Source of the DNA: an uncultured Faecalibacterium sp.
GTDB lineage: Bacteria > Bacillota > Clostridia > Oscillospirales > Ruminococcaceae
Assembly: GCA_944385995.1 (NCBI GenBank)
Contig: CALWZL010000006.1
Coordinates: 16,388-80,387, forward strand
DNA: 64,000 nt
Reading direction: 5' to 3'
Shown: positions 689 through 19,413 of the stretch, in pieces
Layout: every line of letters begins with the position of its first letter
Position numbering within the stretch: the stretch's first letter is position 1
Program-made: the position numbers and the translations under genes
Notes under the pieces: generated by a model
Seen by the model: only the letters and a program-made list of their open reading frames with translations
Databases searched by the model: none
Told to the model about the DNA's origin: nothing

Positions 689-764
<76 letters not shown>

Positions 765-5909: not shown

Positions 5910-8141
5910 ATGCGCACAACCACACTGCTCACCTCCGCCCGCTTTTCCAAGGGCGGTGAACCCTTTGCCACGGTAGCACTCCCCCACACCTGGAATGCGA
6001 AGGACGGCCAGGACGGCGGCAACGACTACTGGCGCGGCGTCGGCACCTACGAGATTGCCGTCCCCAATCCCACCGACGGCAAACGTCAGTTTATTGAGTT
6101 CAAGGGCGCCAACCATGTGGCCACCGTCTACTGCAACGGCCGCCTGATGGGCGAGCACAAGGGCGGTTTCTCCACCTTCCGCTTTGATCTGACTCCTGCC
6201 ATGAAGCCCACCGGCAACGTGGTCCGGGTGGACGTTTCCAACGCTCCCTCCGACATCTACCCCCAGACTGCCGACTTCACCTTCTTCGGCGGCCTGTACC
6301 GGGAAGTCGGCTTCATCGAGACTTCCCCCGCCCACTTCGACCTGATGAAGGGCGGCACCAGCGCCGTCTTTGTCACCCCCAGTGTGGCCGGCAACACCCG
6401 TCTGGACCTGTTCCCGGTGGAGGCTGAGGGCTGCACCGTCAATGTAGACCTGAAGGACGCCGACGGCGCCATTGTGGCCTCCGGCTCTGCTCCTGCCGAG
6501 CCCCATCTGGTCATGACCCTGTCGGTCAAGGCCCCCCACCTGTGGAACGGCATGGCCGATCCCTACTGCTACACCGCAGAGGCCTCCATTGTCCGGGGCG
6601 AGGAAGTGCTGGACACCGTGGCGGTGGACTACGGCTACCGCTCCTTCCATGTGGACCCCAACACCGGCTTCTGGCTCAACGGCAAGAATGTCCCCCTGCA
6701 CGGCGTCGCCCGCCATCAGGACCGTCTGGACAAGGGCTGGGCCATCAGCCGCGCCGACCACGAGGAGGACATCGCCCTGATTAAGGAAGTGGGCGCCAAC
6801 ACCATCCGTCTGGCCCACTATCAGCATGACCAGCACTTCTATGACCTGTGCGACCACACCGGCTTTGTGGTCTGGGCCGAAATTCCCTTCATCAGCCGCT
6901 TCATTCCCGGCAAAGAGGCCCACGACAACACCATCAGCCAGATGACCGAGCTCGTCAGCCAGAACTACAACCATCCCTCCATCTTCTTCTGGGGCATCTC
7001 CAACGAGATCCTCATCGGCAAAGACCGGGAGGACCTGCGCCGGAACCTGCGGGAGCTGAACGCCCTGGCCAAGCGGCTGGACCCCAGCCGTATGACCACC
7101 ATGGCCCAGGTCACCATGACCCCCATGGACAGCGAACACAACATGATTACCGATGTGGTGAGCTATAACCACTACTTCGGCTGGTACTTCGGCGAGGCCG
7201 CCGACAACGGCCCCTGGCTGGACAAGTTCCACGCCCTCTATCCCGACCGCTGCCTGGGCGTGTCGGAGTACGGCTCCGAGGCCATCACCAAGTGGCACTC
7301 CGCCTACCCCGAGAACCACGACTACACCGAGGAATACGCCTGCGAGTATCACCATGAGATGCTCAAGACCTTCGCAACCCGTCCCTACCTGTGGGCCACC
7401 CATCTGTGGAACATGTTCGACTTTGCCGCGGACGGCCGCGACGAGGGCGGCGTCCAGGGCCGGAACAACAAGGGCCTGGTGACCTACGACCGCAAGATCA
7501 AGAAGGATGCCTTCTACATCTACCAGGCCTACTGGACCACCGAGCCGATGATGCACGTCTGTGGCGTCCGGTTTGTGGACCGCGCCCCCGGCGAGCGGAA
7601 CGTCACCGTCTACACCAACTGCCCCACCGTCACCCTGGTGGTGAACGGCGCCGAGGTCGCCACCCTGCCCGCTGAGGATCACGCCGCCGTGTTCAAGGAT
7701 GTGCCCCTGAACGACGGCCCCAACACCGTCACCGCCAAGTGCGGCGATGTCACCGCCAACACCATCACCCTGAACGGCGTGGCCGAGCACAACTACGCTT
7801 ACGACCTGCCCGAGGGCAACGAAGCCGCCAACTGGTTTGACGATCCCGCCGCCCGCGCTGCCCGCAAGCCGCTGGACTATCCCGAGGGCTTCTACTCCAT
7901 CAAGGACAAGGTCACCGATCTGCTGGCCAACAGCGAGACGGCAGCCGTCATCCATGACGCCATGCAGGTCTTTGCCAAGAGCAGCATGATGAGCATGATG
8001 GGCAACGACAAGGACGACGATCAGGGCGGCATCATGGGCACCATGCGTCTGGCCGATATGATGAAGATGGCCAGCAAGTCCTTCACCGCCGATGTCAAGC
8101 GCCAGATCAACGAGGCCCTGACCAAGATCAAGAAGAACTGA
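5910..8141 (+). CDS. Glycoside hydrolase family 2 (beta-galactosidase/beta-glucuronidase type)
   Basis: A cytoplasmic GH2 enzyme of 743 residues. An N-terminal jelly-roll (LPHTWNA, FEFKGANHVATVYCNG-type region), an Ig-like domain and a TIM barrel are visible. The acid/base is Glu366 in WGISNE and the nucleophile is Glu453 in GVSEYG. The motif GRNNKGLVTYDRK fits the NxK signature of gut beta-glucuronidases, but beta-galactosidases carrying NDK look the same, so substrate is unresolved; the mannonate-oxidoreductase neighbour mildly favours glucuronides. The last 80 or so residues form a charged, Met-rich helical tail (MMSMMGNDKDDDQGG onward) not expected in GH2. The start follows AAAGGAG. Confidence 0.9.
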   Translation: MRTTTLLTSARFSKGGEPFATVALPHTWNAKDGQDGGNDYWRGVGTYEIAVPNPTDGKRQFIEFKGANHVATVYCNGRLMGEHKGGFSTFRFDLTPAMKPTGNVVRVDVSNAPSDIYPQTADFTFFGGLYREVGFIETSPAHFDLMKGGTSAVFVTPSVAGNTRLDLFPVEAEGCTVNVDLKDADGAIVASGSAPAEPHLVMTLSVKAPHLWNGMADPYCYTAEASIVRGEEVLDTVAVDYGYRSFHVDPNTGFWLNGKNVPLHGVARHQDRLDKGWAISRADHEEDIALIKEVGANTIRLAHYQHDQHFYDLCDHTGFVVWAEIPFISRFIPGKEAHDNTISQMTELVSQNYNHPSIFFWGISNEILIGKDREDLRRNLRELNALAKRLDPSRMTTMAQVTMTPMDSEHNMITDVVSYNHYFGWYFGEAADNGPWLDKFHALYPDRCLGVSEYGSEAITKWHSAYPENHDYTEEYACEYHHEMLKTFATRPYLWATHLWNMFDFAADGRDEGGVQGRNNKGLVTYDRKIKKDAFYIYQAYWTTEPMMHVCGVRFVDRAPGERNVTVYTNCPTVTLVVNGAEVATLPAEDHAAVFKDVPLNDGPNTVTAKCGDVTANTITLNGVAEHNYAYDLPEGNEAANWFDDPAARAARKPLDYPEGFYSIKDKVTDLLANSETAAVIHDAMQVFAKSSMMSMMGNDKDDDQGGIMGTMRLADMMKMASKSFTADVKRQINEALTKIKKN

Positions 8142-8201
8142 TTGCTTTCAACCAAACTTCCTCTCCATTTCATATTTCCTTTCTTTTCCAATCTTCATGA
8201 G

Positions 8202-8233
8202 AACAGGCGCACCTTTTCGGGTGCGCCTGTTTT
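8202..8233 (+). terminator. Terminator after GH2
   Basis: Stem CAGGCGCACC/GGTGCGCCTG with a short loop, followed by TTTT, 60 bp after the GH2 stop. Confidence 0.8.
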
Positions 8234-8252
8234 CATTGGCCGGTGCAGAACA

Positions 8253-8283
8253 AAAGGGCGCACCCCTGGGGGGTGCGCCCTTT
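8253..8283 (-). terminator. Terminator of the phage-like block
   Basis: A 14-bp perfect stem (AAAGGGCGCACCCC and its complement, loop TGG) is followed on the minus strand by TGTTCT. It lies just past the last phage-like gene and ends the long minus-strand transcript. Confidence 0.8.
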
Positions 8284-8291
8284 CGGTGCCG

Positions 8292-9557
8292 TCACTGGTC
8301 CCGCATGGCGTCGAACATGTCTTTGATTTCGTCGATGCTGTATCCCTGGGACCGCATCTTCCGGGCGAACTGGACGTAATCCATCCCGCCGGTCCCGCTG
8401 GAAGCCGCAGTGGTGCCGGTGCTGCCCGAGGAACTGTTCTTGCTGCCCGAGCTGGAGGAACTGCCCGAGGACTTGGAGGACTGGGCGGCGGCGCGGGCGC
8501 TGGCCGCCGCGGCTTCCTGCTGCGCCTGGGTCCGCTTGAGCTCCCATTCACCCTGGGCGATGGCCAGCTTCTGGCTGGTGACATCGTTGTCAAACTGCTG
8601 CTGGGTCAGGGTGTCCTGGTACTTCTGGGCGGCGACCTGATCCTCGTAGGACTGCTGGGCCAGACTGTCCTGGCGCAGCTGTTCCTGCATCTGCTGGCTC
8701 CAGGCGGCGTCGGCCCGGTCGGCCTCGTAGTCCCGGTTGTCGGCGTACATGCCGTAGCCGGCCTGGGCCAGACTGCTCAGCAGAGACCCCAGACCAGTGG
8801 TGCCGCTGATGGCCAGCTGAACCGCATTGCCCACCAGGCCCAGCACGCTCATGACGTTGTTGAAGGTCTGCTGGCGGCGGCTGGCTTCTGCCGCCTCTTC
8901 CTCGCTGTAGTAGCCGTAGAGGGTGTTCAGGTTGTTCAGGTAGTCGGTGTACTGGGCGTAGTCCTGGGCATAGGCGGCGCTGTAGGCGTCCTGCTTCTGC
9001 TCCAGCTGGGTATAATAGTCGTCCAGCTGCCGGTAATAGAGATCCTGTGCGTTCTGTTCCTGGGTGTTGAGGGCGTTGATCTGATTCATCAGCAGATCGC
9101 CCTCGCTGGTGTAGCTGTCCAGGGCCAGACTGTACAGGGTGGGAATCACGCTGTTCAGCCCGTTCATCTGCTGCTGATAGGCCTGCTGGGCCGCACTGGT
9201 GGCGTAGCTGGACCCGTAGCCGCCGGTCAGGGATGCAGCCTGGGCTGCGGCGTCGGTGCTGGCGTCGTGGGCGTTCTGACGATAGGTCTGGGCGTACTGA
9301 CGGTACAGCGGGTCGGAGGCATAGTCATAGGAAAAGCTCTCCTGCCCCATCGCCTTGTCCAACAGGCTGTTGATCTGATCCTGATACTGGCTCTGATAGG
9401 CCGCCGGCCGGCTGGCCTGCCACTGTTCCAGGGCGCTGGCCGCACTGCTCACCGACGCCCCCGGCTGGTACTGGGCCGAGGCCAGCGCCTGCTGCACCGA
9501 GGCCTTGTCGTTGAGGCCCTGGGTGCTGTAGGGGTCTTTTTTACGATTGGTCGCCAT
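8292..9557 (-). CDS. Low-complexity phage structural protein (internal or ejection protein candidate)
   Basis: A 421-residue last gene of the head operon. The N-terminal 220 residues are rich in Gln, Ala, Tyr and Asp and look helical/coiled. A hydrophobic stretch (VMSVLGLVGNAVQLAISGTT, then LGSLLSSLAQAGYGMYA) follows at about 230-280. Another Gln-rich helical region leads to a Ser/Gly linker around residues 360-390 and a short conserved-looking tail (FARKMRSQGYSIDEIKDMFD). This architecture fits internal virion or ejection proteins that sit behind the portal, but I cannot identify the family. RBS AAAGGGGG precedes the start. Confidence 0.6.
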   Translation of the reverse strand: MATNRKKDPYSTQGLNDKASVQQALASAQYQPGASVSSAASALEQWQASRPAAYQSQYQDQINSLLDKAMGQESFSYDYASDPLYRQYAQTYRQNAHDASTDAAAQAASLTGGYGSSYATSAAQQAYQQQMNGLNSVIPTLYSLALDSYTSEGDLLMNQINALNTQEQNAQDLYYRQLDDYYTQLEQKQDAYSAAYAQDYAQYTDYLNNLNTLYGYYSEEEAAEASRRQQTFNNVMSVLGLVGNAVQLAISGTTGLGSLLSSLAQAGYGMYADNRDYEADRADAAWSQQMQEQLRQDSLAQQSYEDQVAAQKYQDTLTQQQFDNDVTSQKLAIAQGEWELKRTQAQQEAAAASARAAAQSSKSSGSSSSSGSKNSSSGSTGTTAASSGTGGMDYVQFARKMRSQGYSIDEIKDMFDAMRDQ

Positions 9558-9572
9558 CTGGCTCCCCCTTTC

Positions 9573-9764
9573 TCACTGCCCGTTCCCCTGGAGCTGGCTT
9601 CGCAGCCCCTCCGAGAGGTTGTCGGTGTCGATATTGGTCAAAACATACTGTAACTGTTCCTGCATCTGATAGAGGTAATTGCGGATCACCCGCGCATCCT
9701 CCGGGTTCATGCTGTCGCTCAGCCGGGGCAGGCCCAGCTTGCTCAGCCCTGCAATGCTTGCCAT
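9573..9764 (-). CDS. Small phage-operon protein, unknown
   Basis: A 63-residue soluble protein (MASIAGLSKLGLPRLSDS...) with a predicted helical middle (RVIRNYLYQMQEQLQYVL). The start at 9764 is chosen for the upstream AAAGGAG. It lies between the stabilisation-like protein and the low-complexity protein, with tight spacing on both sides. Function is unknown; a virion accessory role is inferred from context only. Confidence 0.55.
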   Translation of the reverse strand: MASIAGLSKLGLPRLSDSMNPEDARVIRNYLYQMQEQLQYVLTNIDTDNLSEGLRSQLQGNGQ

Positions 9765-9783
9765 AGGCAAAATGCTCCTTTCT

Positions 9784-11655
9784 TTACAGGCCGCCCTTGG
9801 CCGCGGCAAAGGTGCGGCTGACGCTGCGCAGGGTCATCTGCCCGGTGCCGGTCAGCCGGAACCGGATGGTATCGTGGCGCCGGGGCACCAGCGAAATGCA
9901 CAGCTTTTCCTTTTCGTCCCGGGCCAGCGCCGCGGCCAGTTTTTCCCAGGGCCCGCCGTCACAGCTGGCCCAGACTTCCAGATAGGTCCCCTGTTTGGCG
10001 TCCAGCCGGAGGGTCAGCCGGGAGAGATACTTGTCCTCGCTCTCGTCCAGGCCGATGTCCCCGGTCTCCAGCCGGAAGGGAAGTTCTGCTTCGCCCTGCC
10101 CTTCCCCGCCGGCCATGACGATATCCTCGTCCCGGGCCGGTCCCGCCGCCCAGAGGGCGGCGCCGTCCCAGAGATAGAGCTGCCGGCCGCTGGACATCAG
10201 TTCCAGCTGCCCGCCATCGCCGGGGTCCTCCTGGTGCCACAGGCCCCGCTCGGTGTCGTAGACCAGAAGGCGGCCGCCGGCCTCCAGCCCCAGCCAGAGA
10301 TAATACCGCCCGTCCAGCCATCCGCCGGCGGCCTGCCGGACCTCAGCCAGCCGCTGGGAATCCAACACGCCGGACACCTTCACCGGCAGGCTGCCATCCC
10401 AGGCCATCACTCCTTCGGGGGAGAGATAATACAGGGTCTCGTTGATGACACAGAGGCTCTGGGCGGCATTCTGGGCCACGCCGCGGCACCGCAGGGAGCT
10501 CAGCTGAAAATCTGAGGGTTTGGTCCCACAGAGCTTGTGCAGGGTGTTCTCTTTGAAAAACAGCACATAGCCCATGCAGGTGGCCGCCCCGGTAAAATTG
10601 CCGTCGCTGCCCACCGTCACCGCGTAGCTGTCGGCGGCGGTGTTCCGGTAGGAGAACCAGTTGGTGGGATCTCCCAATTTGCAGGCGTAGATCACATTTT
10701 CCCCGCTGGAACAGCCCCAGACCCGGTTGTCGCACTCGGTCAGGTAGTCCAGGCGGGGCACCCGCCGTTCGCACCGGACGGCATTTTCGACGGTGTAAGA
10801 CAGGGTGGATGTCCCGTCCAGACTGGTCCAGACCACCTCCCGGCCGGTCTGCAGCATCTTTCCGTAGAAATGTTCCCCGCCCGGGGTCACCTGGACCATC
10901 AGCCAGTCATCGCCGGCATTGTAGAGGACTTTTTCTCCGTCCAGGTCCTCGCAGACCCCGGCGGCAGACGCGGCGGTGCCCTCCACCGTGACGGTATCCC
11001 ATACCGCGAACTCCTTTCCGATGCCCTCGGCGTAGATCCGGCAGTAATCCAGGGTCACCGCAGTCCACCGCTCCAAAGAACTGCTGTAAATTTCCAGCAC
11101 GCCGTCGGCGTTCCAGGGGCTGGACTGGCTCACCACTTTCAAAAAGACTTCCCCGTCCTGGGGGCTTTGGGGCTCGGACAGGCCCCAGCTGTTGACGGTG
11201 TAGGTGGTGCCGTCGGCGTCGCAGGGGATCATCTCGATGGAAGCGCCCCCGCCGGCCCAGGATGCCCCCAGATTTTTGAGGGTGCCGTCGGCGGTGTCAA
11301 AGGCCTTTTGGTCAGGAAAAATCAGGACCTGGGTGCCGATGCCCACCAGGGCCTTTTTCCCTTCCGTCAATACGCCGCTGAGCACCACCGGCTCCGCCCC
11401 GCTGTCGGGGGTATAGGTCAGACCGCCCCCGCCGATCAGAAGAAAACCGTTCAGATGGTACATCCCGTCCACCCCGGTCAAATCCCGCAGGCGGCGGCGG
11501 GGAATCCGGGTGGACAGGGCCGGAAAGTCCCGGCTGGAGAAATTTTCTCCCGCCGCATATTCGGCCTCGGTGCAGCCGAAGGTTTCATTCAGCCCGCCAA
11601 ACACCCGCATTTGTTTGCGGCTGTTTTTGAGGGCGGGCAGTTCAGGCAAATACAT
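9784..11655 (-). CDS. Phage head-to-tail stabilisation/hub-like protein
   Basis: A 623-residue, beta-rich protein with short repeated units such as YHLNGFLLIGGGGLTY, WLDGRYYLWLGL and LYLWDGAALWAAG, resembling a propeller-like fold. Length, position after the connector-like gene and the opening (YLPELPALKNSRKQMRVFGGLNE) resemble podovirus packaged-DNA stabilisation proteins, but the family assignment is tentative. RBS AAAGGGGGGA precedes the ATG. It would seal the portal or form a short tail. Confidence 0.55.
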   Translation of the reverse strand: MYLPELPALKNSRKQMRVFGGLNETFGCTEAEYAAGENFSSRDFPALSTRIPRRRLRDLTGVDGMYHLNGFLLIGGGGLTYTPDSGAEPVVLSGVLTEGKKALVGIGTQVLIFPDQKAFDTADGTLKNLGASWAGGGASIEMIPCDADGTTYTVNSWGLSEPQSPQDGEVFLKVVSQSSPWNADGVLEIYSSSLERWTAVTLDYCRIYAEGIGKEFAVWDTVTVEGTAASAAGVCEDLDGEKVLYNAGDDWLMVQVTPGGEHFYGKMLQTGREVVWTSLDGTSTLSYTVENAVRCERRVPRLDYLTECDNRVWGCSSGENVIYACKLGDPTNWFSYRNTAADSYAVTVGSDGNFTGAATCMGYVLFFKENTLHKLCGTKPSDFQLSSLRCRGVAQNAAQSLCVINETLYYLSPEGVMAWDGSLPVKVSGVLDSQRLAEVRQAAGGWLDGRYYLWLGLEAGGRLLVYDTERGLWHQEDPGDGGQLELMSSGRQLYLWDGAALWAAGPARDEDIVMAGGEGQGEAELPFRLETGDIGLDESEDKYLSRLTLRLDAKQGTYLEVWASCDGGPWEKLAAALARDEKEKLCISLVPRRHDTIRFRLTGTGQMTLRSVSRTFAAAKGGL

Positions 11656-11667
11656 GAAATCCCCCCT

Positions 11668-12048
11668 TTACCAGCGCACCTGCCGGGGCACAGGTTTGAA
11701 ATTGCGCCGCAGCCAGACCGCAAATTCCCCCAGCACCGCATTGCAGCGGGCCATTTCCCCGCTGTAGCGGTCGTTTTCCCCCAGGGCGGCGTCGGTCATC
11801 CCAGACAGATAGTGGGGATACACCCGGTCAAATGGGAAGGGGATGAGCAGTTCTGCACTGTCCGCCAATCCGTCCGCCCAGAGCAGGTCTGCCCCCACGC
11901 TGTCGAATCCCTCCGCGCCGACGGGCTGCATGAGCCGGGTACGGACTTCGCCGTCCTGTCCCCGCAGCCAGCCTTTCATGGTTTCTTCGTCGATCTCACA
12001 GCCCGGGCGCATGGCCCTGGCCTGACTGATTGCCTCGCCTGCCGTCAT
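11668..12048 (-). CDS. Phage head-tail connector-like protein
   Basis: A 126-residue protein, mostly helical (MTAGEAISQARAMRPGCEIDEETMKGWL at the N-terminus, quoted as a description of a helical segment only), with a central region carrying Pro-Phe-Asp and Tyr motifs and ending in RRNFKPVPRQVRW. Its size and place after the capsid genes fit head-completion or connector proteins. The start at 12048 follows AAAGGAGGCTTGCAG; a longer frame from 12084 lacks a site. Confidence 0.55.
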   Translation of the reverse strand: MTAGEAISQARAMRPGCEIDEETMKGWLRGQDGEVRTRLMQPVGAEGFDSVGADLLWADGLADSAELLIPFPFDRVYPHYLSGMTDAALGENDRYSGEMARCNAVLGEFAVWLRRNFKPVPRQVRW

Positions 12049-12116
12049 CTGCAAGCCTCCTTTCTCTGGAAAAAAGCCCGGCACACCGGACCATGCGCTG
12101 TGCCGGGCTGATTCAA

Positions 12117-12332
12117 TTACTTCCCTGCTGCGTCCTCGGCCGCCGCAATGCGGGCGGCGGTCAGATCATCCTGGCGCTGGCTGTGTTCCAGCACCTCGGC
12201 GACGGCCCGGGGCACTTCCACCTCGACGCCGCGGCGAATCTTGTAGTTGACGCCGTTGACGCTGACAAACAGGTCGCCCTTGTAGCGGCCGTTGTCCTTA
12301 AACAGACGGATGCGGACCTTGTCCTCTGCCAT
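12117..12332 (-). CDS. Small phage head protein, unknown
   Basis: A 71-residue protein with a beta-rich N-terminal half (VRIRLFKDNGRYKGDLFVSV, VNGVNYKIRRGVEVEVP) and an Ala-rich helical C-terminus. AAAGGAGAAATGATCC precedes the ATG. It immediately follows the major capsid gene, where small decoration or head-completion proteins are common. Function is assigned from position only. Confidence 0.6.
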   Translation of the reverse strand: MAEDKVRIRLFKDNGRYKGDLFVSVNGVNYKIRRGVEVEVPRAVAEVLEHSQRQDDLTAARIAAAEDAAGK

Positions 12333-12361
12333 GGATCATTTCTCCTTTCTGCCCTTTTGGC

Positions 12362-13402
12362 TCAGTTGGCGGCTGCCGAAGCCGAATAGCTGGACAGGCT
12401 CTCGATGCGGACCATGTACTGTTCCACCAGACGCTCGGCGGCCCGCATGCCCTTCCAGCCCACCGAAGCGCGCTGGTTCAGGGGGTCGTCGCCGTAGCCC
12501 AGCTGCTTGACGATGTGCTCCAGGCCGCCGCCCTCCAGCTCGGTGACGCCGTAGGCGTGGGCGCCCAGCACCAGGGTGCCGAACACCGCGTAGCGGCCGC
12601 TGCTACCGTCAGAGGGGCAGGTGTCATCCTTCCAGATCTTGGCCTCGCTGGTCTCGATGAAGCGGATGTTGCCCAGCTTGCCGATCTCGCCCCGGTACAT
12701 GGCCTCGGGGTCGGCGTACTTGTGGACCTCGATCCACTCCTTGCTGGTCTTGAGGTCGTAGGCGGCGTAGGGGTGGATGATGGCCACATAGCTGTCGCCC
12801 AGGGTGTCGGCGTTCATAGCGCCCAGCTGGGCCGCCGCCTGGAAGAACAGCTTGGGGGTCAGCTTGCATGCCAGGGTCAGATTGGCGCGGCTGGTGACGG
12901 CGGTCTCGGTGCCGTCCTCGGCCACCTTGGGGGCGTAGATGACATTGGTGCCGCCGGCCAGGACATCCCGGGTCAGGGTGTCCAGGGTGCGGCCGGCTTG
13001 GCTGGCCAGAATGCGGGTGGCCTGGACCACATTGTTGTCGATGGCAGTCATCTGGAGCACGTCGGTCAGGGGGGTCCAGCCGCCGTACTGGTGCAGGTCG
13101 CTCTTGATGGTGGAGACGGTCAGGCTCTGGCCGTCGGGGGTGACGCCTTCGGTCAGCGGAGTGGTTGCCTTGGGCAGGCTGTCATACTTGCGGAACTCGA
13201 TGGTCTTGCCGCCGCCCACCGGCATGGGGTAGTAGTCGGCAAACTGGTCGTGGACCAGCCGGGGCTCAGCCTGGTCAATCAGACGCTTCTCATAGAAGGT
13301 CTTCATCTCGGCGGTCATGCCCGAAGCTGCGGTGGTGTTCTGCAGCTGGCTGGACGCATCGGCAAAGAACTGCAGGTCAAAGGCGAATTCGTTGTGTTTC
13401 AT
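12362..13402 (-). CDS. Major capsid protein, N4-gp56 family
   Basis: A 346-residue HK97-fold-type major capsid protein resembling the N4-gp56 family (regions IEFRKYDSLPKATTPLTEG, LHQYGGWTPLTDVLQMTA, and a C-terminal VRIESLSSY). The N-terminus MKHNEFAFDLQFFADAS contains DLQFFA, the consensus cleaved by the Firmicutes protease Prp in ribosomal protein L27 and in some staphylococcal phage capsid proteins. The mature capsid protein is therefore expected to start after Ala14. The adjacent upstream gene supplies a Prp-like domain. RBS AAAGGATTGACAC lies before the ATG. Confidence 0.85.
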   Translation of the reverse strand: MKHNEFAFDLQFFADASSQLQNTTAASGMTAEMKTFYEKRLIDQAEPRLVHDQFADYYPMPVGGGKTIEFRKYDSLPKATTPLTEGVTPDGQSLTVSTIKSDLHQYGGWTPLTDVLQMTAIDNNVVQATRILASQAGRTLDTLTRDVLAGGTNVIYAPKVAEDGTETAVTSRANLTLACKLTPKLFFQAAAQLGAMNADTLGDSYVAIIHPYAAYDLKTSKEWIEVHKYADPEAMYRGEIGKLGNIRFIETSEAKIWKDDTCPSDGSSGRYAVFGTLVLGAHAYGVTELEGGGLEHIVKQLGYGDDPLNQRASVGWKGMRAAERLVEQYMVRIESLSSYSASAAAN

Positions 13403-13460
13403 GTGTCAATCCTTTCTTTGCTATTCCATGCCGGCCGAAGCCGGCGCGTATCCTGAAAAC

Positions 13461-14402
13461 TTACAGGCGGATTCTGGCCCCGTGGAGGGCCTCCCGCTCG
13501 ATGGCCTCCCGCTGGGCCCGGCTCATCCGGCTCACATCGGGGGCGGTGGTCATGGCGCCCTGGCTGTGGATGCCGTTTTCCGTGGGGCGGGCGCCCCGTT
13601 CCTGGACCCGGTTCATCACTCCCTGTTCCACAGTGCGGGCGGTGCCCTCCATCAGCTTGTCGTAGAAGGCTGCGTGGTAGGCCTCCTGCATCCGCATCCC
13701 GGGTATCCGCATCATCCGGCGCATGGCGGGGTTTTTCAGGGCCTCCTTCAGGGAGAACTTGGGGTCGCCCCGGCGCATTTCTGCCTCCTCCCGGGCCCAC
13801 TGCCGGTGGAGGGAACGGATGAACCGTCCCACCTCGCCGATGCCCATCATGGGCTCCCGGCGGGGCTGTTCCGTCTGCCGCAGGGGAGCTGCATCCTTGG
13901 GCGGAGGCGGCGCTTCCTGGTCCTGTTTCTTGCTGCGGCGGCCCATGGTGCCCTCTGCCATCGCCTGCCGCTCCTGTTCCCGGCTGAGGGAGGGGCCCTT
14001 CCGGTCCTTTTTGTCCTTCTGGGCAAAGAGCTGCAGATCGATCATCCCCTCCTCGCCCCGGCTGCTGGTGTCGGCAAACCGCAGGTTGTCGGGATACCGC
14101 TCGGCCAGCAGGGCCAGGCCGGTCTTGACCAGCTCAAACCCGCCGTCCAGCCGCTGCGCTTCCCCGGGGTCTGCACCGGGTTCCGCCGTAATCACCACCC
14201 GGGGTCCCTCGGGACCGTCCGACGCGGTGCAGGCGGCGTGTTCCGACTCGGCGGCCATCCAGATCAGGGCCTGGGCCAAAATGCTGGCCCCGGCGCAGAC
14301 AATGTCCTGTCCGGCCGGCGCATAGCCGGCGTGGCCTTTGACTTCCAGACGCCGGGTCACCCCGGCGGGACCGTCCAGCTCACTGTAAATTGCTTGGATC
14401 AT
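13461..14402 (-). CDS. Prp-like cysteine protease fused to phage scaffold protein
   Basis: A 313-residue fusion. Residues 1-115 match the ribosomal-processing cysteine protease Prp: KGHAGYA gives His24 and DIVCAGAS gives Cys36, with the 12-residue spacing seen in Prp. Residues 120-127 read MIDLQLFA, a Prp-type cleavage motif, exactly at the domain junction. Residues 128-313 are highly charged and helical (KDKKDRK, then Met/Arg-rich segments) as in scaffolds. There is no stop or frameshift between the parts. GAGGAGGGG just before Met120 could also allow internal initiation of the scaffold alone. The gene lies between portal and capsid genes, the usual scaffold/protease position. RBS AAGGAGGTAACTACCG precedes the start. 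Confidence 0.8.
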   Translation of the reverse strand: MIQAIYSELDGPAGVTRRLEVKGHAGYAPAGQDIVCAGASILAQALIWMAAESEHAACTASDGPEGPRVVITAEPGADPGEAQRLDGGFELVKTGLALLAERYPDNLRFADTSSRGEEGMIDLQLFAQKDKKDRKGPSLSREQERQAMAEGTMGRRSKKQDQEAPPPPKDAAPLRQTEQPRREPMMGIGEVGRFIRSLHRQWAREEAEMRRGDPKFSLKEALKNPAMRRMMRIPGMRMQEAYHAAFYDKLMEGTARTVEQGVMNRVQERGARPTENGIHSQGAMTTAPDVSRMSRAQREAIEREALHGARIRL

Positions 14403-14408
14403 CGGTAG

Positions 14409-16190
14409 TTACCTCCTTGTGTTGGTGTTCATGGCTCTGCGGGCCGCCGCGTTGGGGCTGGCCGGCTGGGCGGCAGTGGTTTTCTGCCCGCCGGCGGTGC
14501 GGACGGTCCGGGCCGCCTGGGTCAGCCGGGTCAGCTGCTGCTGGGCCATCTGAAGCTGTTTGGCCAGGGTGCCGTTTTGCCGCACCCGCTGGCGGACCTT
14601 CTCGATCCCCTCAAAGTCCATCATCTCCAGGGCAGCCAGTGCCGCGTCGGCGTTGGCCGGGTTGAAGAAGCCCAGCTGATAGCACTCCTTGGCGGTCTCG
14701 TTCTGGGTGAGGCGGCTGAAAGTGGACTTTTTGGCCGCCGAGATGGTGATGTCAAAGACCGGTTCCCGGCTGCCCAGCTCGACGCCGCCCACGCTGGCGG
14801 CCGGCACAGCCCGCAGCGCCGCGCCGCTGAACTGCACAAAGACGTTCTGTCCCTTTTCCCCGGTGATCCGAAAGACCCGCTCCTCGTCGTAAAACTGCCG
14901 CATCAGGTCGATGACCAGATAGCACTCCTTGGCGAAGGCCCGGTACGCGCTCTTGAGCATGTCCCGGGACAGCTTGCTTCCGGCCTCCTGCAGGGCTGCG
15001 ATGGCCGAAGCCGCCGTCACGCCCCCCGAGGTGCCGCCCTGGCTGATGTCCCGGTTGCCGCTGATCTCCTTCAGCTCGTCCACCCGGCTGTTGCGGTAGG
15101 TGATGGAACTGGACTGGAGTCCCGCGGTCTGGAGCTGATGGAAACTGTCGTCGTTGAGCCGGCCGGTGACATGGATGATGTCCCGGCCAAAGTCGGTCAG
15201 TTCTTCTTCGTTGACCCCGGCCGAATCGCTGAGAACATACCGCTGTTTGGAGGCCAGCAGGACATTTTCGTCCATGGCCTGGTTCATCTTGTCGATGGAG
15301 TTCTGGCAGTCCTTCATGATGTCGATGTACCCGAAGCCCGCCGGGCTGTCCTCTTCCTGGAACAGCACGTCAAAGACGAAGGGATACTTCCCGTGGTCAT
15401 AGAAACCTTTTTCGGCCAGACGGGGGTCGTTTTCGCTGGCATAGAGGACGATCCCGTTGCAGAACTTGCAGTAGTGCACCAGCTCTTTACCGCCGGGGCC
15501 CGGCTTTTTGTAGTACCAGTCCACCACCACGCTTTTGTCGGTGGTGTCGATGCTGTCGTCGTGGATGTACCGGGCCGCATCGATGGTGCCGCCGGTGCGG
15601 CCCCGCAGCTGGGGATACCGGGCGGCCAGCTGGTCCGAATCCTCCAGGCTCAGGCTGAAAAAGTGGGGGCTGTCCTGGATGTCCATGATCCCCGGCTCCC
15701 AATAGAGCATCAGGAGATTCATGGACCGGATGGCGATTTCCCCCAGACCGCCCCGGGCAGTGGGGTCCCAAAAGACCCCCTTGACACCGGTGCCCTGTTT
15801 CAGCTTCCGCCACCAGCTGTCGGAGTAGACCTGCTCGTAGTCGGCCTGCTCCAGCACCACCGGCAAAATGCTGGAGAGGGTCCGGGCGGTGGCCTCGTCG
15901 TCGGCTGCCCGGGGCAGGACGTTGGGTTCGGGGTAGTTGTCCATGGCGTCGGCGTGCTTGCTGGCGATGGAGTTGAACAGCCACCCGCTGGAGGGCTGGG
16001 GTTTGCCCTCCATCATCCGGTTTTTGTACTGCTTCCAGTGGGCCATCCGAAACCACAGCTCATTGTCGATGAGACGCCGGTCCAAAGCCGCCTTGCCGGC
16101 CTTATACTTGTGCAGGATGCGCTCTGCCTCGGCGGCCTGTTCGGGGCCGATGACCGGCGCGGCCTGCATCTGAATTTCCTTTTCTTGCAT
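14409..16190 (-). CDS. Phage portal protein (podovirus type)
   Basis: A 593-residue portal. Evidence: position after TerL; N-terminal clamp/wing region with WLFNSIASKHADAMDNYPEPNVLPR; a core with YIDIMKDCQNSIDKMNQAMDENVLL; and a long helical C-terminus (QRVRQNGTLAKQLQMAQQQLTRLTQ) that would line the head channel. It forms the dodecameric ring through which DNA is packaged. GAGGTGAAACG precedes the ATG, and its start is 9 bp past the end of TerL. Confidence 0.85.
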   Translation of the reverse strand: MQEKEIQMQAAPVIGPEQAAEAERILHKYKAGKAALDRRLIDNELWFRMAHWKQYKNRMMEGKPQPSSGWLFNSIASKHADAMDNYPEPNVLPRAADDEATARTLSSILPVVLEQADYEQVYSDSWWRKLKQGTGVKGVFWDPTARGGLGEIAIRSMNLLMLYWEPGIMDIQDSPHFFSLSLEDSDQLAARYPQLRGRTGGTIDAARYIHDDSIDTTDKSVVVDWYYKKPGPGGKELVHYCKFCNGIVLYASENDPRLAEKGFYDHGKYPFVFDVLFQEEDSPAGFGYIDIMKDCQNSIDKMNQAMDENVLLASKQRYVLSDSAGVNEEELTDFGRDIIHVTGRLNDDSFHQLQTAGLQSSSITYRNSRVDELKEISGNRDISQGGTSGGVTAASAIAALQEAGSKLSRDMLKSAYRAFAKECYLVIDLMRQFYDEERVFRITGEKGQNVFVQFSGAALRAVPAASVGGVELGSREPVFDITISAAKKSTFSRLTQNETAKECYQLGFFNPANADAALAALEMMDFEGIEKVRQRVRQNGTLAKQLQMAQQQLTRLTQAARTVRTAGGQKTTAAQPASPNAAARRAMNTNTRR

Positions 16191-16199
16191 CGTTTCACC

Positions 16200-17645
16200 T
16201 CATATTCTGTAAAATGCCGCCTGTCTGCGGGGCCGCAGGTCCAGGGGGTCGTCGGGCAGGGGCGCCGGCGCCGGCCGCGAGGGCGGACTGATGGGATTTT
16301 CCATCAGGACATACCGGCACTCGTCGTAGATGTGATCCTCCTGGCGGGAATCCACATCCTCCACGTTGCTCTCGTCGTACACCAGAGAGGGGATGGTGCG
16401 GATGAAATGTTTGCAGGTGCGGAACACCTGGAACATGGGCCGCCCCTCCCCGTCGAAGGCCAAACGGTAGTGCATCTGCATCTTGCCGGCCAGACGGGTG
16501 TTGTCGGCCGCCGCCCAGTGGATGCCGCCCGGAGGCCGCTCCATCATGGCGGCGATGCTCTCTCCCCGGCTCTCGTCGAAGATGGCCGGGTCGGCCACCC
16601 CGCGGATCACCCGGCCCCGGAGGACGGGGTCGTTCTGTTCCGCCTCCCGAATCCGCCGGGCCTGTTCCACCGGGTCCAGCCGGAGCCCCTCGTTGGGTCG
16701 GCCGGTGCAGCCGTACAGCTCCTTGATCCGGTAGATGCGGCCGTCCTCGTCCACCGCGTACCACCCCACCGAGAAGGGCCGGGAATACCCGAAGTCGTAC
16801 CCCCGCCAGATCCGCCAGTGTTTGGGAATCTCAAAGGGTTCCACCACATGGGTCCAGCGCTGGTCCCGGTAATGTTCGGGGTCGTTGCGCCACTCGGTGA
16901 ACACCTGGCCCGAAAAGCTGTCCCAGCTGCCATAGAGCAGGGCCTGCTTTTCCGCCTCGGGGAGGGCGGCCAGGCTGGCCAGATAGTCGGGGTCGTTGGC
17001 CAGCAGGGCGGGATTGTCAAAGACGCTGGAAGGGATGAACACCCGTGCCCGGGTATAGGTCCGGGTGGTGCCGTCGGGCATTCGCACCTGGTATTCCTCC
17101 CGGATGGGTGTGCCGGGGGGCGCGGGGGTGATGAACCGTTCTTTCACCCAGCCGTGGCCCACCCCGCCGGGGTTGGTGGTGGCCCGCATGTACACCCGGG
17201 TGCCGGGGCCGGTGGGGCGGTTGCGGCTCATCATGTAGCTGTACTCCTCCCACTCAAAATGGGTCAGCTCGTCAAACCCGATGAAGTCGAAGGCCTTGCC
17301 CTGGTAGTTGGTGCGGTCCTTGGTGTACTGCATCGACCCGAAGTAGATCTTGGCCCCGCTGGGGAAAATCCAGACGTGGGCGGTGGCATTGTACTGGGCC
17401 CCCGGGAAAGCCCGGCGGTAATAGTTCATGCTCTTGTCCACCAGGTCGCTCAGCTGGGGGAAGGTTTTCCGCAGAATCAGGGCCCGGTAGTGGGGAATGT
17501 CCACCTGCCGCAGCGCCTCGATCACCAGCGCGTCGCTCTTTCCCCCGCCGGCCGCCCCTCCGTAGAGAGCTTCCGGCTCGCTGCGCTCCATGAACGCCCG
17601 CTGCCGGGGCTGGGGCTGCCAGATGATGGGGGCCTGCCGGTTCAT
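16200..17645 (-). CDS. Phage terminase large subunit
   Basis: A 481-residue packaging motor. The ATPase half has Walker A GGAAGGGKSDAL (residues 29-40) and Walker B FIGFDELTHF with Asp125-Glu126, followed by the coupling motif MRATTNPGG. The nuclease half contains acidic motifs (RGYDFGYSRP, GVADPAIFDE and HIYDECRY) typical of RNase H-like terminases. No truncation is seen. Its start overlaps the upstream small gene by 4 bp (ATGA), implying translational coupling. Confidence 0.93.
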   Translation of the reverse strand: MNRQAPIIWQPQPRQRAFMERSEPEALYGGAAGGGKSDALVIEALRQVDIPHYRALILRKTFPQLSDLVDKSMNYYRRAFPGAQYNATAHVWIFPSGAKIYFGSMQYTKDRTNYQGKAFDFIGFDELTHFEWEEYSYMMSRNRPTGPGTRVYMRATTNPGGVGHGWVKERFITPAPPGTPIREEYQVRMPDGTTRTYTRARVFIPSSVFDNPALLANDPDYLASLAALPEAEKQALLYGSWDSFSGQVFTEWRNDPEHYRDQRWTHVVEPFEIPKHWRIWRGYDFGYSRPFSVGWYAVDEDGRIYRIKELYGCTGRPNEGLRLDPVEQARRIREAEQNDPVLRGRVIRGVADPAIFDESRGESIAAMMERPPGGIHWAAADNTRLAGKMQMHYRLAFDGEGRPMFQVFRTCKHFIRTIPSLVYDESNVEDVDSRQEDHIYDECRYVLMENPISPPSRPAPAPLPDDPLDLRPRRQAAFYRI

Positions 17646-17917
17646 CCTGTTGTCTCCTCCTTTCCTTCCACCTGCGGCAGCAGCACCACGCCGTATTCCG
17701 GCCCGTCGCTCTCGCCGCTCTGCTCGCCCAGGCTCTTGGCCACGGCCGCCAAATCCTTGAGCACCGCAGTGATCTCCTTGAGGGCTTTCATGTCTCCCTC
17801 TCCGTCGGACTGACGCCGCCGGGCCGCCAGGGCCCGCGCTTCCTGGACCAGCAGTCCGCTCAGCAGATCGGTGGTTTTCTGTAAATCTGTCAGGCTGCCG
17901 TTTTTCTTTCTCGCCAT
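17642..17917 (-). CDS. Small terminase subunit candidate
   Basis: A 91-residue, mostly helical protein (MARKKNGSLTDLQKTTDLLSG..., then ALKEITAVLKDLAAVAKSLG) immediately upstream of and overlapping the large terminase. Position and helical content suit a small terminase or DNA-recognition subunit, but no helix-turn-helix is obvious, so this is positional. The start at 17917 follows AAAGGAGCGAAACA; the longer frame to 18154 would run through two terminators. Confidence 0.6.
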   Translation of the reverse strand: MARKKNGSLTDLQKTTDLLSGLLVQEARALAARRRQSDGEGDMKALKEITAVLKDLAAVAKSLGEQSGESDGPEYGVVLLPQVEGKEETTG

Positions 17918-18053
17918 TGTTTCGCTCCTTTCTGCCGCTGTCCGGCCGCCTGACCCTATCCTATCACCCGCCCCGGTTTTCCCCCAGTGTGTCCTTTCAG
18001 TCCTGTTTTCCGGTTTGTAAAACGGGTGTTTTCTGCGTTTTTTCCGGCAAACA

Positions 18054-18137
18054 AAAACCGGACTCCGCCCGTGGCAAAGTCCGGTTTTCTGCATACAAAA
18101 AAACACCGCACCATCTGTGCGGTGTTTTTTTGTATGC
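18054..18137 (-). terminator. Double terminator between tlpA and the phage-like block
   Basis: Two hairpins lie in series. A perfect 21-bp inverted repeat (arms 18091-18111 and 18117-18137, loop CATCT) has CACCGCAC/GTGCGGTG at its core and runs of seven T on both strands, so it is bidirectional. A second stem (arms 18054-18064 and 18079-18089, AAAACCGGACT) follows. They insulate the redox operon from the phage-like genes. Between them and 17917 only a weak promoter-like GATAGGAT on the minus strand is visible. Confidence 0.8.
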
Positions 18138-18749
18138 TCAGGTTGTGGGTGCAATCAGGTCGATGCCCTGCTGTAAGGTGTCGGCATCGATGGCGCCGGT
18201 GGCCCGGGCCACTGCATATCCTTCGGCATCGATGAAATAGGTGGTGGGCAGGGAATAAGCCCCATAGGTGATGGCCGCATCTGAGTCGGTATCATACAGC
18301 ACCGGGAAGGTATACCCCTGCTCTTCTATGAAAGCAGACGCGCTGTCCACCGTCTCCCGGCCGCCGTCGGTCATGTTAATCATCAGGAACTGGATTTCCT
18401 CTCCCAGCTCCAGGTATTTGTCCTGGAAATCTGGCATCTCCATCTGGCAGGGGCCGCACCAGCTGGCCCAGAAATTCACCACCAGAGGCTTGCCGATGTA
18501 GTCGGACAGATGAACCTGGTTGCCCTCCCGATCATAAACCGTGAAATCCGGCGCCAGCGCCTTTTCAGGCTCGGAGGTCTCTCCGCTGTCCGCCGTCTGC
18601 CCGCTGCCGGCCGCCTGGCTCTGGGAGGATTCCACCGTCAGCTGGTTGTGGGTGAGCCCCTTTCCCAGCCATCCATAGAGGGTGTAAGCCCCTCCCAGCA
18701 GAAGGACAAACACCAGACCCAGTACAAATACGATTCGCTTTTTGTCCAT
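18138..18749 (-). CDS. Membrane-anchored thioredoxin-like protein, TlpA/ResA type
   Basis: A 203-residue extracytoplasmic thiol reductase. An N-terminal membrane anchor (residues 6-28) is followed by a Ser/Gly-rich linker and a redoxin domain with active site WCGPC, the FWASWC context and cis-proline SLPTTYF. It would reduce disulfides outside the membrane using electrons delivered by the upstream CcdA. It is the last gene of the operon, and its stop codon abuts the perfect hairpin. Confidence 0.9.
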   Translation of the reverse strand: MDKKRIVFVLGLVFVLLLGGAYTLYGWLGKGLTHNQLTVESSQSQAAGSGQTADSGETSEPEKALAPDFTVYDREGNQVHLSDYIGKPLVVNFWASWCGPCQMEMPDFQDKYLELGEEIQFLMINMTDGGRETVDSASAFIEEQGYTFPVLYDTDSDAAITYGAYSLPTTYFIDAEGYAVARATGAIDADTLQQGIDLIAPTT

Positions 18750-18759
18750 GCCTGCCTCC

Positions 18760-19413
18760 TTAGCTCAGCAGGGCCAGCAGCCGGCCCAGGGTTCCGGTGG
18801 CCATCAGAACGCCGATGAACACCAGCAGTCCGCCCGAAAGGGCATTGATGACCCCATAATGGCGTTTGATCCAGTCAAAGGCCGATTTCAGATAGTCGAT
18901 CAATACGGCGCTGAGGACAAAGGGAATCCCCAGGCCCAGGGAGTAGGCCAGCAGCATCAGCACCCCCTGGACCACATGGCCCTGCTGGGAAGCCAGCGCC
19001 AGAGCCGAGCCCAGGAACGCCCCCACGCAGGGGGTCCAGCCCACCGAGAAGATGACGCCGAACACCAGCGCCTGGAAAAAGCCCATGTCGCTGGTGTCCA
19101 CCTGATGGCGGCTGCCCTGAAACAGGTTCAGCCGGAACACCCCCAAAAAGTGGAGGCCGAAGAAAATCACCACCAGACCCGACACCAGGTTCACGGCGGT
19201 CTGGTACTCCCGCAGGAAACCGCCCACCGTCCCGGCCAGAGCGCCCATGGCCACAAACACCAGGGTAAAACCGGCGACAAAGCCGAGGGCCCCGGTGAGG
19301 GTCTTGCGGACGGTGCGCTCCCCGCCCCCTGCAAAATAGGAGATGTAGATGGGGAGCATGGGCAAAAGACAGGGGGAAATGAAGGTGATGATCCCTTCCA
19401 GAAACGAAATCAC
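18760..19413 (-). CDS. ccdA: CcdA/DsbD-type transmembrane electron carrier
   Basis: A 217-residue polytopic protein with about six membrane segments. Family cysteines are in ISPCLLPMLP near the N-terminus and in GWTPCVGAF in the middle. CcdA passes reducing power from cytoplasmic thioredoxin to periplasmic-side thioredoxin-like proteins. The GTG start at 19413 overlaps the stop of the preceding gene (ATGTGA), suggesting coupling; a second GTG at 19422 is possible. The partners TrxA and TlpA are in the same operon. Confidence 0.9.
   Translation of the reverse strand: MISFLEGIITFISPCLLPMLPIYISYFAGGGERTVRKTLTGALGFVAGFTLVFVAMGALAGTVGGFLREYQTAVNLVSGLVVIFFGLHFLGVFRLNLFQGSRHQVDTSDMGFFQALVFGVIFSVGWTPCVGAFLGSALALASQQGHVVQGVLMLLAYSLGLGIPFVLSAVLIDYLKSAFDWIKRHYGVINALSGGLLVFIGVLMATGTLGRLLALLS

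What the first reader, a model, noticed from the sequence alone, without database searches (positions are those of the whole stretch)
13461..14402. Prp-type protease fused to a scaffold, with a Prp-like cleavage motif at the junction
Seen: a single open frame with His24 and Cys36 at Prp spacing, then MIDLQLFA (120-127), then a charged helical scaffold-like part. Known: Prp cleaves after a motif like LQFFA in L27 and in some staphylococcal phage capsid and scaffold proteins. Inference: this element carries its own maturation protease, which may free itself from the scaffold by self-cleavage, and processes capsid in cis or trans. Ordinary phages of this kind rely on the host Prp or a separate gene. 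Internal initiation at Met120 is an alternative.
Basis: partly seen in the sequence, partly recalled or inferred. Interest (0 to 1): 0.82.

Follow-up and report, generated by a model that had tools for sequence, protein, structure and literature searches.

The report
Capsid scaffold fused to Prp protease
A domesticated virus-like particle operon of the gut bacterium Faecalibacterium makes its capsid scaffold as one protein with a Prp-type protease, a protease the bacterium itself appears to have lost, so capsid processing could be studied apart from the ribosome job this enzyme normally has.

Summary
On the MINUS strand (14402 to 13461) one 313-aa ORF joins a Prp cysteine-protease domain (Pfam PF04327, E=1.6e-13; His24, Asp33, Cys36) to a scaffold-like part, with DLQLFA at the junction. 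The capsid gene next door also begins with a Prp-type site; an exact pattern for the site matches the own assembly only at these two places. The element agrees with FpGTA I, a published Faecalibacterium gene-transfer-agent-like operon whose paper never uses the word protease in its main text. Prp was found in 30 of 31 genus genomes, and all 32 copies lie in this operon. No L27-linked Prp was found, and all 24 readable L27s (of 27) lack the extension Prp cuts. 26 of 32 copies are fused. Of 80 viral loci kept (duplicates included), 23 are fused, all with LQ(L/M)F(A/G) at the junction; 57 were scored as separate prp. Fused genes do not form one clade on a capsid tree. Best explanation: a protease-scaffold that cuts itself at F126|A127 and the capsid protein at F13|A14, designed like P2 gpO or lambda C/Nu3 but with Prp. 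Cleavage is inferred, not shown. Internal initiation at Met120 remains open.

The parts
14073..14402 (-). Prp-type cysteine protease domain, residues 1-110 (His24, Asp33, Cys36)
   Evidence: Pfam PF04327 E=1.6e-13, residues 13-107; phrog_4478 peptidase; profile of 27 fused proteins matches solved Prps 2g0i, 4peo/7kld, 7jvs; dN/dS 0.03-0.25
14022..14045 (-). Junction MIDLQLFA, residues 120-127; predicted Prp cut F126|A127; Met120 = possible internal start
   Evidence: L123, Q124, F126 are the only invariant columns between P104 and W202 in 22 fused proteins; ATG in 26 of 26 intact fused genus copies; start-site strength
13461..14024 (-). Scaffold-like part, residues 127-313, and stop codon
   Evidence: phrog_13908 (unknown function), residues 199-312, E=4.3e-16, matched by 22 of 22 fused proteins; lies between portal and capsid genes; FpGTA I is annotated with a head scaffolding gene (PMC12946183)
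12362..13402 (-). Major capsid protein, N4-gp56 family, N-terminus MKHNEFAFDLQFFADASS; predicted cut F13|A14
   Evidence: TIGR04387 E=1.2e-93; motif at 13362-13378
14409..16190 (-). Portal protein
   Evidence: PF16510 P22_portal E=7.2e-31; phrog_156
16200..17645 (-). Terminase large subunit
   Evidence: PF03237 E=2.6e-16; phrog_979
17642..17890 (-). Small ORF at the place of TerS (start inferred)
   Evidence: Conserved upstream of TerL in most genus copies; TerS label follows PMC12946183; the longer ORF 17642-18154 gave no family match
12117..12332 (-). Conserved 71-aa protein
   Evidence: phrog_15239, unknown function; conserved order
11668..12084 (-). Conserved 138-aa protein
   Evidence: phrog_12105, unknown function; conserved order
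9784..11655 (-). 623-aa protein
   Evidence: phrog_511, internal virion protein, E=1.9e-37
9573..9809 (-). Conserved 78-aa protein
   Evidence: Conserved order; no family match
8292..9557 (-). 421-aa protein, last gene of the cassette
   Evidence: Conserved order; weak phrog_20876, nuclease, E=0.00065

Best explanation
This is the maturation protease and the scaffold of the Faecalibacterium gene-transfer-agent-like element FpGTA I, made as one protein. The Prp domain (residues 1 to about 110) cuts at its own junction between F126 and A127, in cis or between neighbouring copies in the procapsid, which frees the scaffold. It also cuts the major capsid protein between F13 and A14. Shown by sequence: domain identity, catalytic residues, motifs, conservation, absence of an L27-linked Prp in the genus genomes searched, and fused genes in more than one clade. 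Inferred: the scaffold role, activity, the two cuts, and their part in head assembly.
For: Prp domain by Pfam, PHROG and profile match to solved Prps. His, Asp, Cys and LQxF invariant in 27 fused proteins. In 22 more diverse fused proteins the only invariant columns between P104 and W202 are L123, Q124, F126. Low dN/dS of the Prp domain and junction against a fast-changing linker. A relaxed form of the motif stands at the capsid N-terminus in 42 of 42 loci with a fused gene, 22 of 31 with a separate element prp, and 1 of 12 scored as lacking it (that one has a prp behind a portal-like ORF about 19 kb away). The exact motif pattern matches the own genome only at these two sites. Fused relatives L216, L217, L218, L221 and L239/L240 keep LQ(L/M)F(A/G) though no ATG, GTG or TTG lies in the 14 codons before it, so a start beside the motif does not explain why it is kept there. 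All 32 Prp matches in the genus lie in this operon.
Against: No experiment and no structure. The window sequence alone matches solved Prps only weakly (best E=0.0048, SaPrp 0.071). In phage 80alpha, cleavage of capsid and scaffold by Prp is dispensable although the scaffold's N-terminal sequence is needed (PMC5744158, abstract and passages), so the motif need not mean that cleavage matters. Met120 is conserved in the genus, which also fits internal initiation. The link between element prp and capsid motif rests on only 3 phylogenetically independent pairs, too few to test. Over the 31 genus genomes the exact pattern has 42 matches in the operon but also 22 elsewhere, against 7 for the backward control (my count), so it is not unique to the operon in every genome. 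No scaffold-named family matches the C-terminal part.
Confidence: 0.68

Rival explanations
1. Dual-start gene: ribosomes start at ATG 14402 for a minor protease-scaffold and at Met120 (14045) for a major free scaffold, as recalled for lambda C/Nu3. The junction is then mainly the old scaffold N-terminus.
For: Met120 is ATG in 26 of 26 intact fused genus copies. Split copies in five genomes have the scaffold as its own ORF with a similar motif near the likely N-terminus. The ribosome-site score at Met120 is stronger than at control in-frame codons on average (-5.9 against -3.45 kcal/mol; true starts -10.2; 27 genes).
Against: In the window the score (-6.5) is reached by 11.5% of control codons, and five genomes (G009, G014, G018, G022, G029) are at background. 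Synonymous change at residues 111-130 is not low (dS 0.19-1.37 over 20 codons). Fused relatives without a usual start codon near the motif keep it.
Confidence: 0.2
2. Docking rather than cutting: the tethered Prp domain binds LQxFA on capsid protein and scaffold and so recruits capsid subunits; cleavage is incidental.
For: In 80alpha the scaffold N-terminal sequence is required for assembly but need not be cut, and capsid cleavage is dispensable (PMC5744158, abstract and passages).
Against: Catalytic His and Cys are invariant; the scissile F is invariant and the next residue is A or G.
Confidence: 0.1
3. A decayed prophage in which the fusion is an accident without function.
For: One genus copy (G028) is interrupted by an insertion and a change of frame.
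Against: Same gene order in 30 of 31 genomes, apart from genes beyond contig ends; low dN/dS; F. prausnitzii ATCC 27766 makes FpGTA particles whose capsid and portal were found by mass spectrometry (PMC12946183, section read).
Confidence: 0.03

Closest known systems
FpGTA I of Faecalibacterium (PMC12946183; abstract, sections 9 and 10 and passages seen)
   Same: Operon of 10.5 kb (about 9.6 kb in strain APC918/95b), TerS-TerL-portal-scaffold-capsid, in all 12 Faecalibacterium genomes they examined; the same cassette is seen here in 30 of 31 genus genomes
   Different: The word protease does not occur in its main text, so the Prp domain is not described there; in the sections I read there is nothing on the junction and capsid motifs, split and fused forms or host Prp loss. 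Its supplements were not readable here
Host Prp of Firmicutes (MEROPS C108, gene ysxB between L21 and L27; PMC9405229, sections 6, 11, 12, 14, 19 and passages seen)
   Same: Same Pfam family, His/Asp/Cys at the same spacing, same LQxF|A site
   Different: Here the domain lies in a capsid operon, is fused to the scaffold, and readable genus L27s have no extension to cut
Phage 80alpha of Staphylococcus aureus (PMC5744158, abstract and passages seen)
   Same: Scaffold and capsid protein both carry N-terminal LQxF|A sites; 13 residues are removed from its capsid protein, and 13 are predicted here
   Different: 80alpha uses the host's essential Prp; here the element brings its own
Protease-scaffold single genes of P2 and lambda (stated in PMC8508860, passage seen; P2 also in PMC6893505, passage seen)
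   Same: One gene codes protease and scaffold
   Different: Their proteases are of other classes (serine-type; recalled), not Prp
Phage head modules with a separate prp gene (57 of 80 viral loci scored so; e.g. MT835606)
   Same: Prp gene followed, in most of them, by ORFs with an N-terminal LQxFA
   Different: prp is its own gene

Membership tests
Prp cysteine protease (Pfam PF04327, C108) | Match over the curated family cut-off | tested here: met
   51.1 bits against 27; 22 of 22 fused proteins of A4 match at E <= 0.001
Prp cysteine protease (Pfam PF04327, C108) | Catalytic His and Cys 12 residues apart, and the loop Asp | tested here: met
   H24, D33, C36 invariant in 27 fused proteins; SaPrp H22, D31, C34
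Prp cysteine protease (Pfam PF04327, C108) | Prp fold | tested here: inconclusive
   Only by sequence profile to solved Prps, best E=2.3e-9; single sequence best E=0.0048; structure prediction switched off
Prp cysteine protease (Pfam PF04327, C108) | Cuts LQxF|A | not testable with these tools
   Needs expression and mass spectrometry
Ribosomal (L27-processing) Prp | Lies between L21 and L27; host L27 has an extension | tested here: not met
   L27 begins MAHKKG in 24 of 27 genus loci (3 not readable), L21 stop 14-17 nt upstream; the element prp lies between portal and capsid; own genome gave no L27 match
Ribosomal (L27-processing) Prp | NCBIfam ribosomal-processing Prp cut-off | tested here: not met
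   Best 29 bits against 171
FpGTA I | Gene order, size and presence across Faecalibacterium | tested here: met
   against PMC12946183; the paper's strains were not aligned by name
FpGTA I | Particles with host DNA from this genome | not testable with these tools
   Reported for ATCC 27766
Protease-scaffold single gene (P2 gpO, lambda C/Nu3) | Protease and scaffold in one ORF between portal and capsid | tested here: met
   the scaffold role itself is inferred from position
Protease-scaffold single gene (P2 gpO, lambda C/Nu3) | Homologous protease domain | tested here: not met
   Pfam, PHROGs and NCBIfam give only Prp or peptidase families for this domain

The most novel reading that the evidence does not exclude
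A gene transfer agent has become the only keeper of Prp in a whole bacterial genus after the host gave up the ribosomal use of the enzyme. Fusion of Prp to the scaffold arose more than once in related phages, giving a self-releasing protease-scaffold with a protease class that my searches did not show in this design, in which the tethered Prp both recruits capsid protein by its LQxFA tail and times its cutting.
Probability: 0.3. Interest if true: 0.78.

Novelty: new variant of a known kind. Interest (0 to 1): 0.62.

Why it matters
It names a likely maturation protease for a gene transfer agent of an abundant human gut genus; the main text of the paper that described the agent never uses the word protease. 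It separates Prp from its essential ribosome job: where L27 needs no cutting, the catalytic Cys could be changed without stopping translation. What Prp cleavage does for capsid assembly is called unclear for phage 80alpha (PMC5744158, passage) and could be tested here. The comparative set (fused, split, separate, none) gives ready natural controls.

Tried and rejected
Chance motif: rejected for the window and own genome. Assembly artefact: rejected, since 26 genus copies and 23 viral loci are fused. Host Prp missed for lack of sensitivity: unlikely, as the same search finds Prps in relatives at E of about 1e-18 to 1e-27. Junction as a mere relic of the scaffold start: not enough, because fused relatives without a usual start codon nearby keep the motif; a start lost after fusion is not excluded. 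Motif and element prp as a tested pair: raw Fisher p=8e-8, but only 3 independent pairs, so not claimed. Pattern matches outside the operon: 22 in the 31 genomes; 7 of them were read. Three are inside or near the end of frames of 262 or 428 codons (L288, L301, L310), two are inside frames of 92 and 70 codons (L294, L305), one is at codon 4 of a 34-codon frame (L304), and one is the first codons of a 322-codon open frame (L311); I took them as chance, 15 were not read. Promoter-like sites: 2 against 1.8 expected; terminator-like sites: 19 against 9.2, not followed. One clade for all fused genes on the capsid tree: rejected (AU p=3.75e-6), on a quick tree that warns of long branches; capsid and scaffold genes may recombine, and gain and re-splitting cannot be told apart.

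Weak points: one search translated the wrong strand. Alignment A2 held one wrong-strand row (L124); A3 leaves it out. A3 holds three host Prps, so its match to solved Prps is partly by construction; A1 is the fairer test, and A1 includes one virome record (L200) that is a near copy of G003. The 80 viral loci are the best of 141, were picked by two peptide patterns of the Prp domain, and include near-duplicates and genus copies. Separate means at most 25 codons follow the Prp domain in frame; in L228 the prp lies at the end of a 787-codon open frame. The 12 pairs were chosen as close relatives. In one search the script's EXT/short label asked for LQ only and mislabelled extensions written MQ or IQ; I counted from the printed sequences (17 of 17 Prp-bearing hosts extended, 13 of 13 without Prp beginning MAHKKG). 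Only 30 of 186 family L27 loci were read. The capsid motif is a relaxed one, and in L243 the N-terminus was not reached. The tree leaves out 12 near-duplicate viral loci, L007, the contig-end loci L077 and L085, the virome records L200 and L201, and one short row; 85 of 86 capsid proteins found were used. G190 was scored as without element prp there and.

Full report
What is there. The finding's ORF lies on the minus strand, 14402 to 13461, 313 codons from ATG plus stop. It starts 6 nt after the portal stop with a strong ribosome site. Residues 13-107 match Pfam Peptidase_Prp (51.1 bits, cut-off 27) and residues 17-109 phrog_4478, peptidase. Residues 199-312 match phrog_13908, unknown function. 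No scaffold-named family matched; the scaffold label rests on position between portal and capsid, on its charged make-up, and on the published annotation of the same operon. The junction reads MIDLQLFA (120-127). The next gene, an N4-gp56-family major capsid protein (TIGR04387, E=1.2e-93), begins MKHNEFAFDLQFFADASS. The pattern for (D/N)(L/F)QxF(A/G) occurs twice in 64 kb, at these two places, against 0.12 expected. The exact pattern for (D/N)(L/F)Q(L/F)FA matches the own assembly only there (control pattern: 1 match). Over 31 genus genomes it has 64 matches, 42 of them in the operon and 22 elsewhere by my count, against 7 for the backward control.

What the element is. Terminase, portal, Prp-scaffold, capsid and five further genes span about 9.6 kb. 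[quoted passage not shown] abstract, sections 9 and 10 and passages seen). Their main text lists head scaffolding but holds the word protease 0 times; supplements could not be read. Here the cassette is found in 30 of 31 genus genomes, some at contig ends. Thirteen copies share downstream neighbours with each other, and six, the window among them, share the GH2 gene downstream, which fits vertical inheritance within clades.

The host seems to have lost its own Prp. All 32 Prp matches in the genus (30 of 31 genomes) lie in this cassette. L27 was found in 27 of 31 genomes; 24 could be read and all begin MAHKKG, with L21 ending 14-17 nt upstream. The own genome gave no L27 match, probably because the assembly is incomplete. 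In the wider family, 130 of 197 genomes have a Prp. Of 30 L27 loci read, 17 of 17 from Prp-bearing hosts carry the extension and 13 of 13 from hosts without Prp begin MAHKKG. Five related genomes (G104, G141, G161, G190, G215) have two Prp matches, one of them near capsid-element genes as a separate gene (in G141 it is below the curated cut-off, in G190 it is about 19 kb from the capsid gene). The other lies next to L27 in three of them (G141, G161, G215); for two the L27 place was not listed.

Fused, split and separate forms. Of 32 genus copies, 26 are fused, 5 are split into overlapping prp and scaffold frames (G019, G020, G021, G024, G026), and 1 (G028) is interrupted. The split scaffolds keep a motif near the likely N-terminus, degenerate in G024 (LHRFG). 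A scan of viral contigs gave 141 relatives; of the 80 kept, duplicates included, 23 are fused, all with LQ(L/M)F(A/G) at the junction, and 57 were scored separate. Of 9 records with a fused gene that were searched, 3 (those of L216, L219, L220) hold an integrase, so the fusion probably also occurs in temperate phages; of 2 with a separate prp, 1 does. On a capsid-protein tree of 85 rows the fused state needs at least four changes on well-supported branches and a single clade is rejected (AU p=3.75e-6), so it arose more than once or was split again; recombination and long branches are cautions.

Does the junction work as a cut site? In 22 diverse fused proteins the only invariant columns between P104 and W202 are L123, Q124 and F126. 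Across 12 chosen genus pairs dN/dS is 0.03-0.25 in the Prp domain, 0 to 0.27 at the junction (20 codons), 0.20-0.69 in the linker after it and 0.03-0.17 in the scaffold part. In the genus Met120 is ATG in 26 of 26 intact fused copies, which fits a retained scaffold start. The ribosome-site energy there averages -5.9 kcal/mol, between true starts (-10.2) and control codons (-3.45), and is at background in five genomes (27 genes). In L216, L217, L218, L221 and L239/L240 the nearest in-frame ATG, GTG or TTG lies 15 to 45 codons before the motif, yet the motif is kept; a start beside it does not explain that, though one may have been lost. Prp cuts between F and A (PMC5744158, passage), which predicts F126|A127 here and F13|A14 in the capsid protein.

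Capsid motif and element prp. The capsid N-terminus carries a relaxed motif in 42 of 42 loci with a fused gene, 22 of 31 with a separate element prp, and 1 of 12 scored as without one (the interrupted G028, which has it, is set aside). The one of 12, G190, has a prp directly behind a portal-like ORF (judged by eye) about 19 kb from its capsid gene. Of the 9 misses, several have near forms such as NLRMFA or DYQLFA, and in one (L243) the N-terminus was not reached. Only 3 phylogenetically independent pairs exist, so this is a pattern, not a test.

How it most likely works. The protein is made as protease-scaffold, assembles with capsid protein around the portal, and the Prp domain cuts the junction and the capsid N-termini. 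Shown are the parts, their conservation and the lack of another Prp in the genus genomes searched; activity and timing are inferred. A caution comes from 80alpha: there the scaffold's N-terminal sequence is needed but its cutting is not, and capsid cutting is dispensable (PMC5744158, abstract and passages). A docking role, or a mixed role, is therefore open.

Compared with what is known. Prp as host enzyme, and 80alpha as its client, are known (PMC9405229, sections 6, 11, 12, 14, 19 and passages; PMC5744158). One-gene protease-scaffolds are known from P2 and lambda (PMC8508860, passage; P2 in PMC6893505, passage). Of my ten searches of the open-access library, five named Prp or its family (29, 73, 81, 82, 97); their listings showed no paper whose title or abstract start tells of a Prp-scaffold fusion, and the Prp review has neither fusion nor fused in its main text. 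Subscription papers and preprints were not searchable. I therefore call it a new variant of a known kind, inside an already described element.

Noticed in passing
12362-13402 (-): The capsid protein begins MKHNEFAFDLQFFADASS, a Prp-type site that would remove 13 residues, as in phage 80alpha.
   Followed up: yes
L093 (G028) 9192-10276; L201 4595-5680; L212 3604-4695: In G028 and the records MT836324 (L201) and L212 an insert of about 47 codons follows the junction and ends in a second LQ(L/M)FA; in G028 the frame also changes after it.
   Followed up: partly
L066 (G012) and L079 (G016): Two genus genomes hold a second, longer relative of the cassette (fused protein 450 and 472 aa); the G012 one has a capsid row identical in the tree to that of a 39-kb viral record with an integrase (L220).
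   Followed up: partly
L200, L201 (MT836159, MT836324) and L006-L009, L207-L212: Records filed as phage or viral contigs look like copies of the Faecalibacterium GTA-like cassette.
   Followed up: no
family scans: 67 of 197 family genomes gave no Prp match; in the 13 such genomes whose L27 was read it is short, so loss of the Prp/L27-extension pair may have happened repeatedly (some of the 67 are incomplete).
   Followed up: partly
L205 (MT835606) 11968-16216: A phage record has a separate prp followed by three ORFs with an LQLFA motif within 15 codons of the frame start; the third may be a tail protein.
   Followed up: no
8000-19000: Terminator-like sites are more frequent than in shuffles (19 against 9.2), on both strands.
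   Followed up: no
689-764 (-): tRNA-Thr gene, far from the cassette.
   Followed up: no
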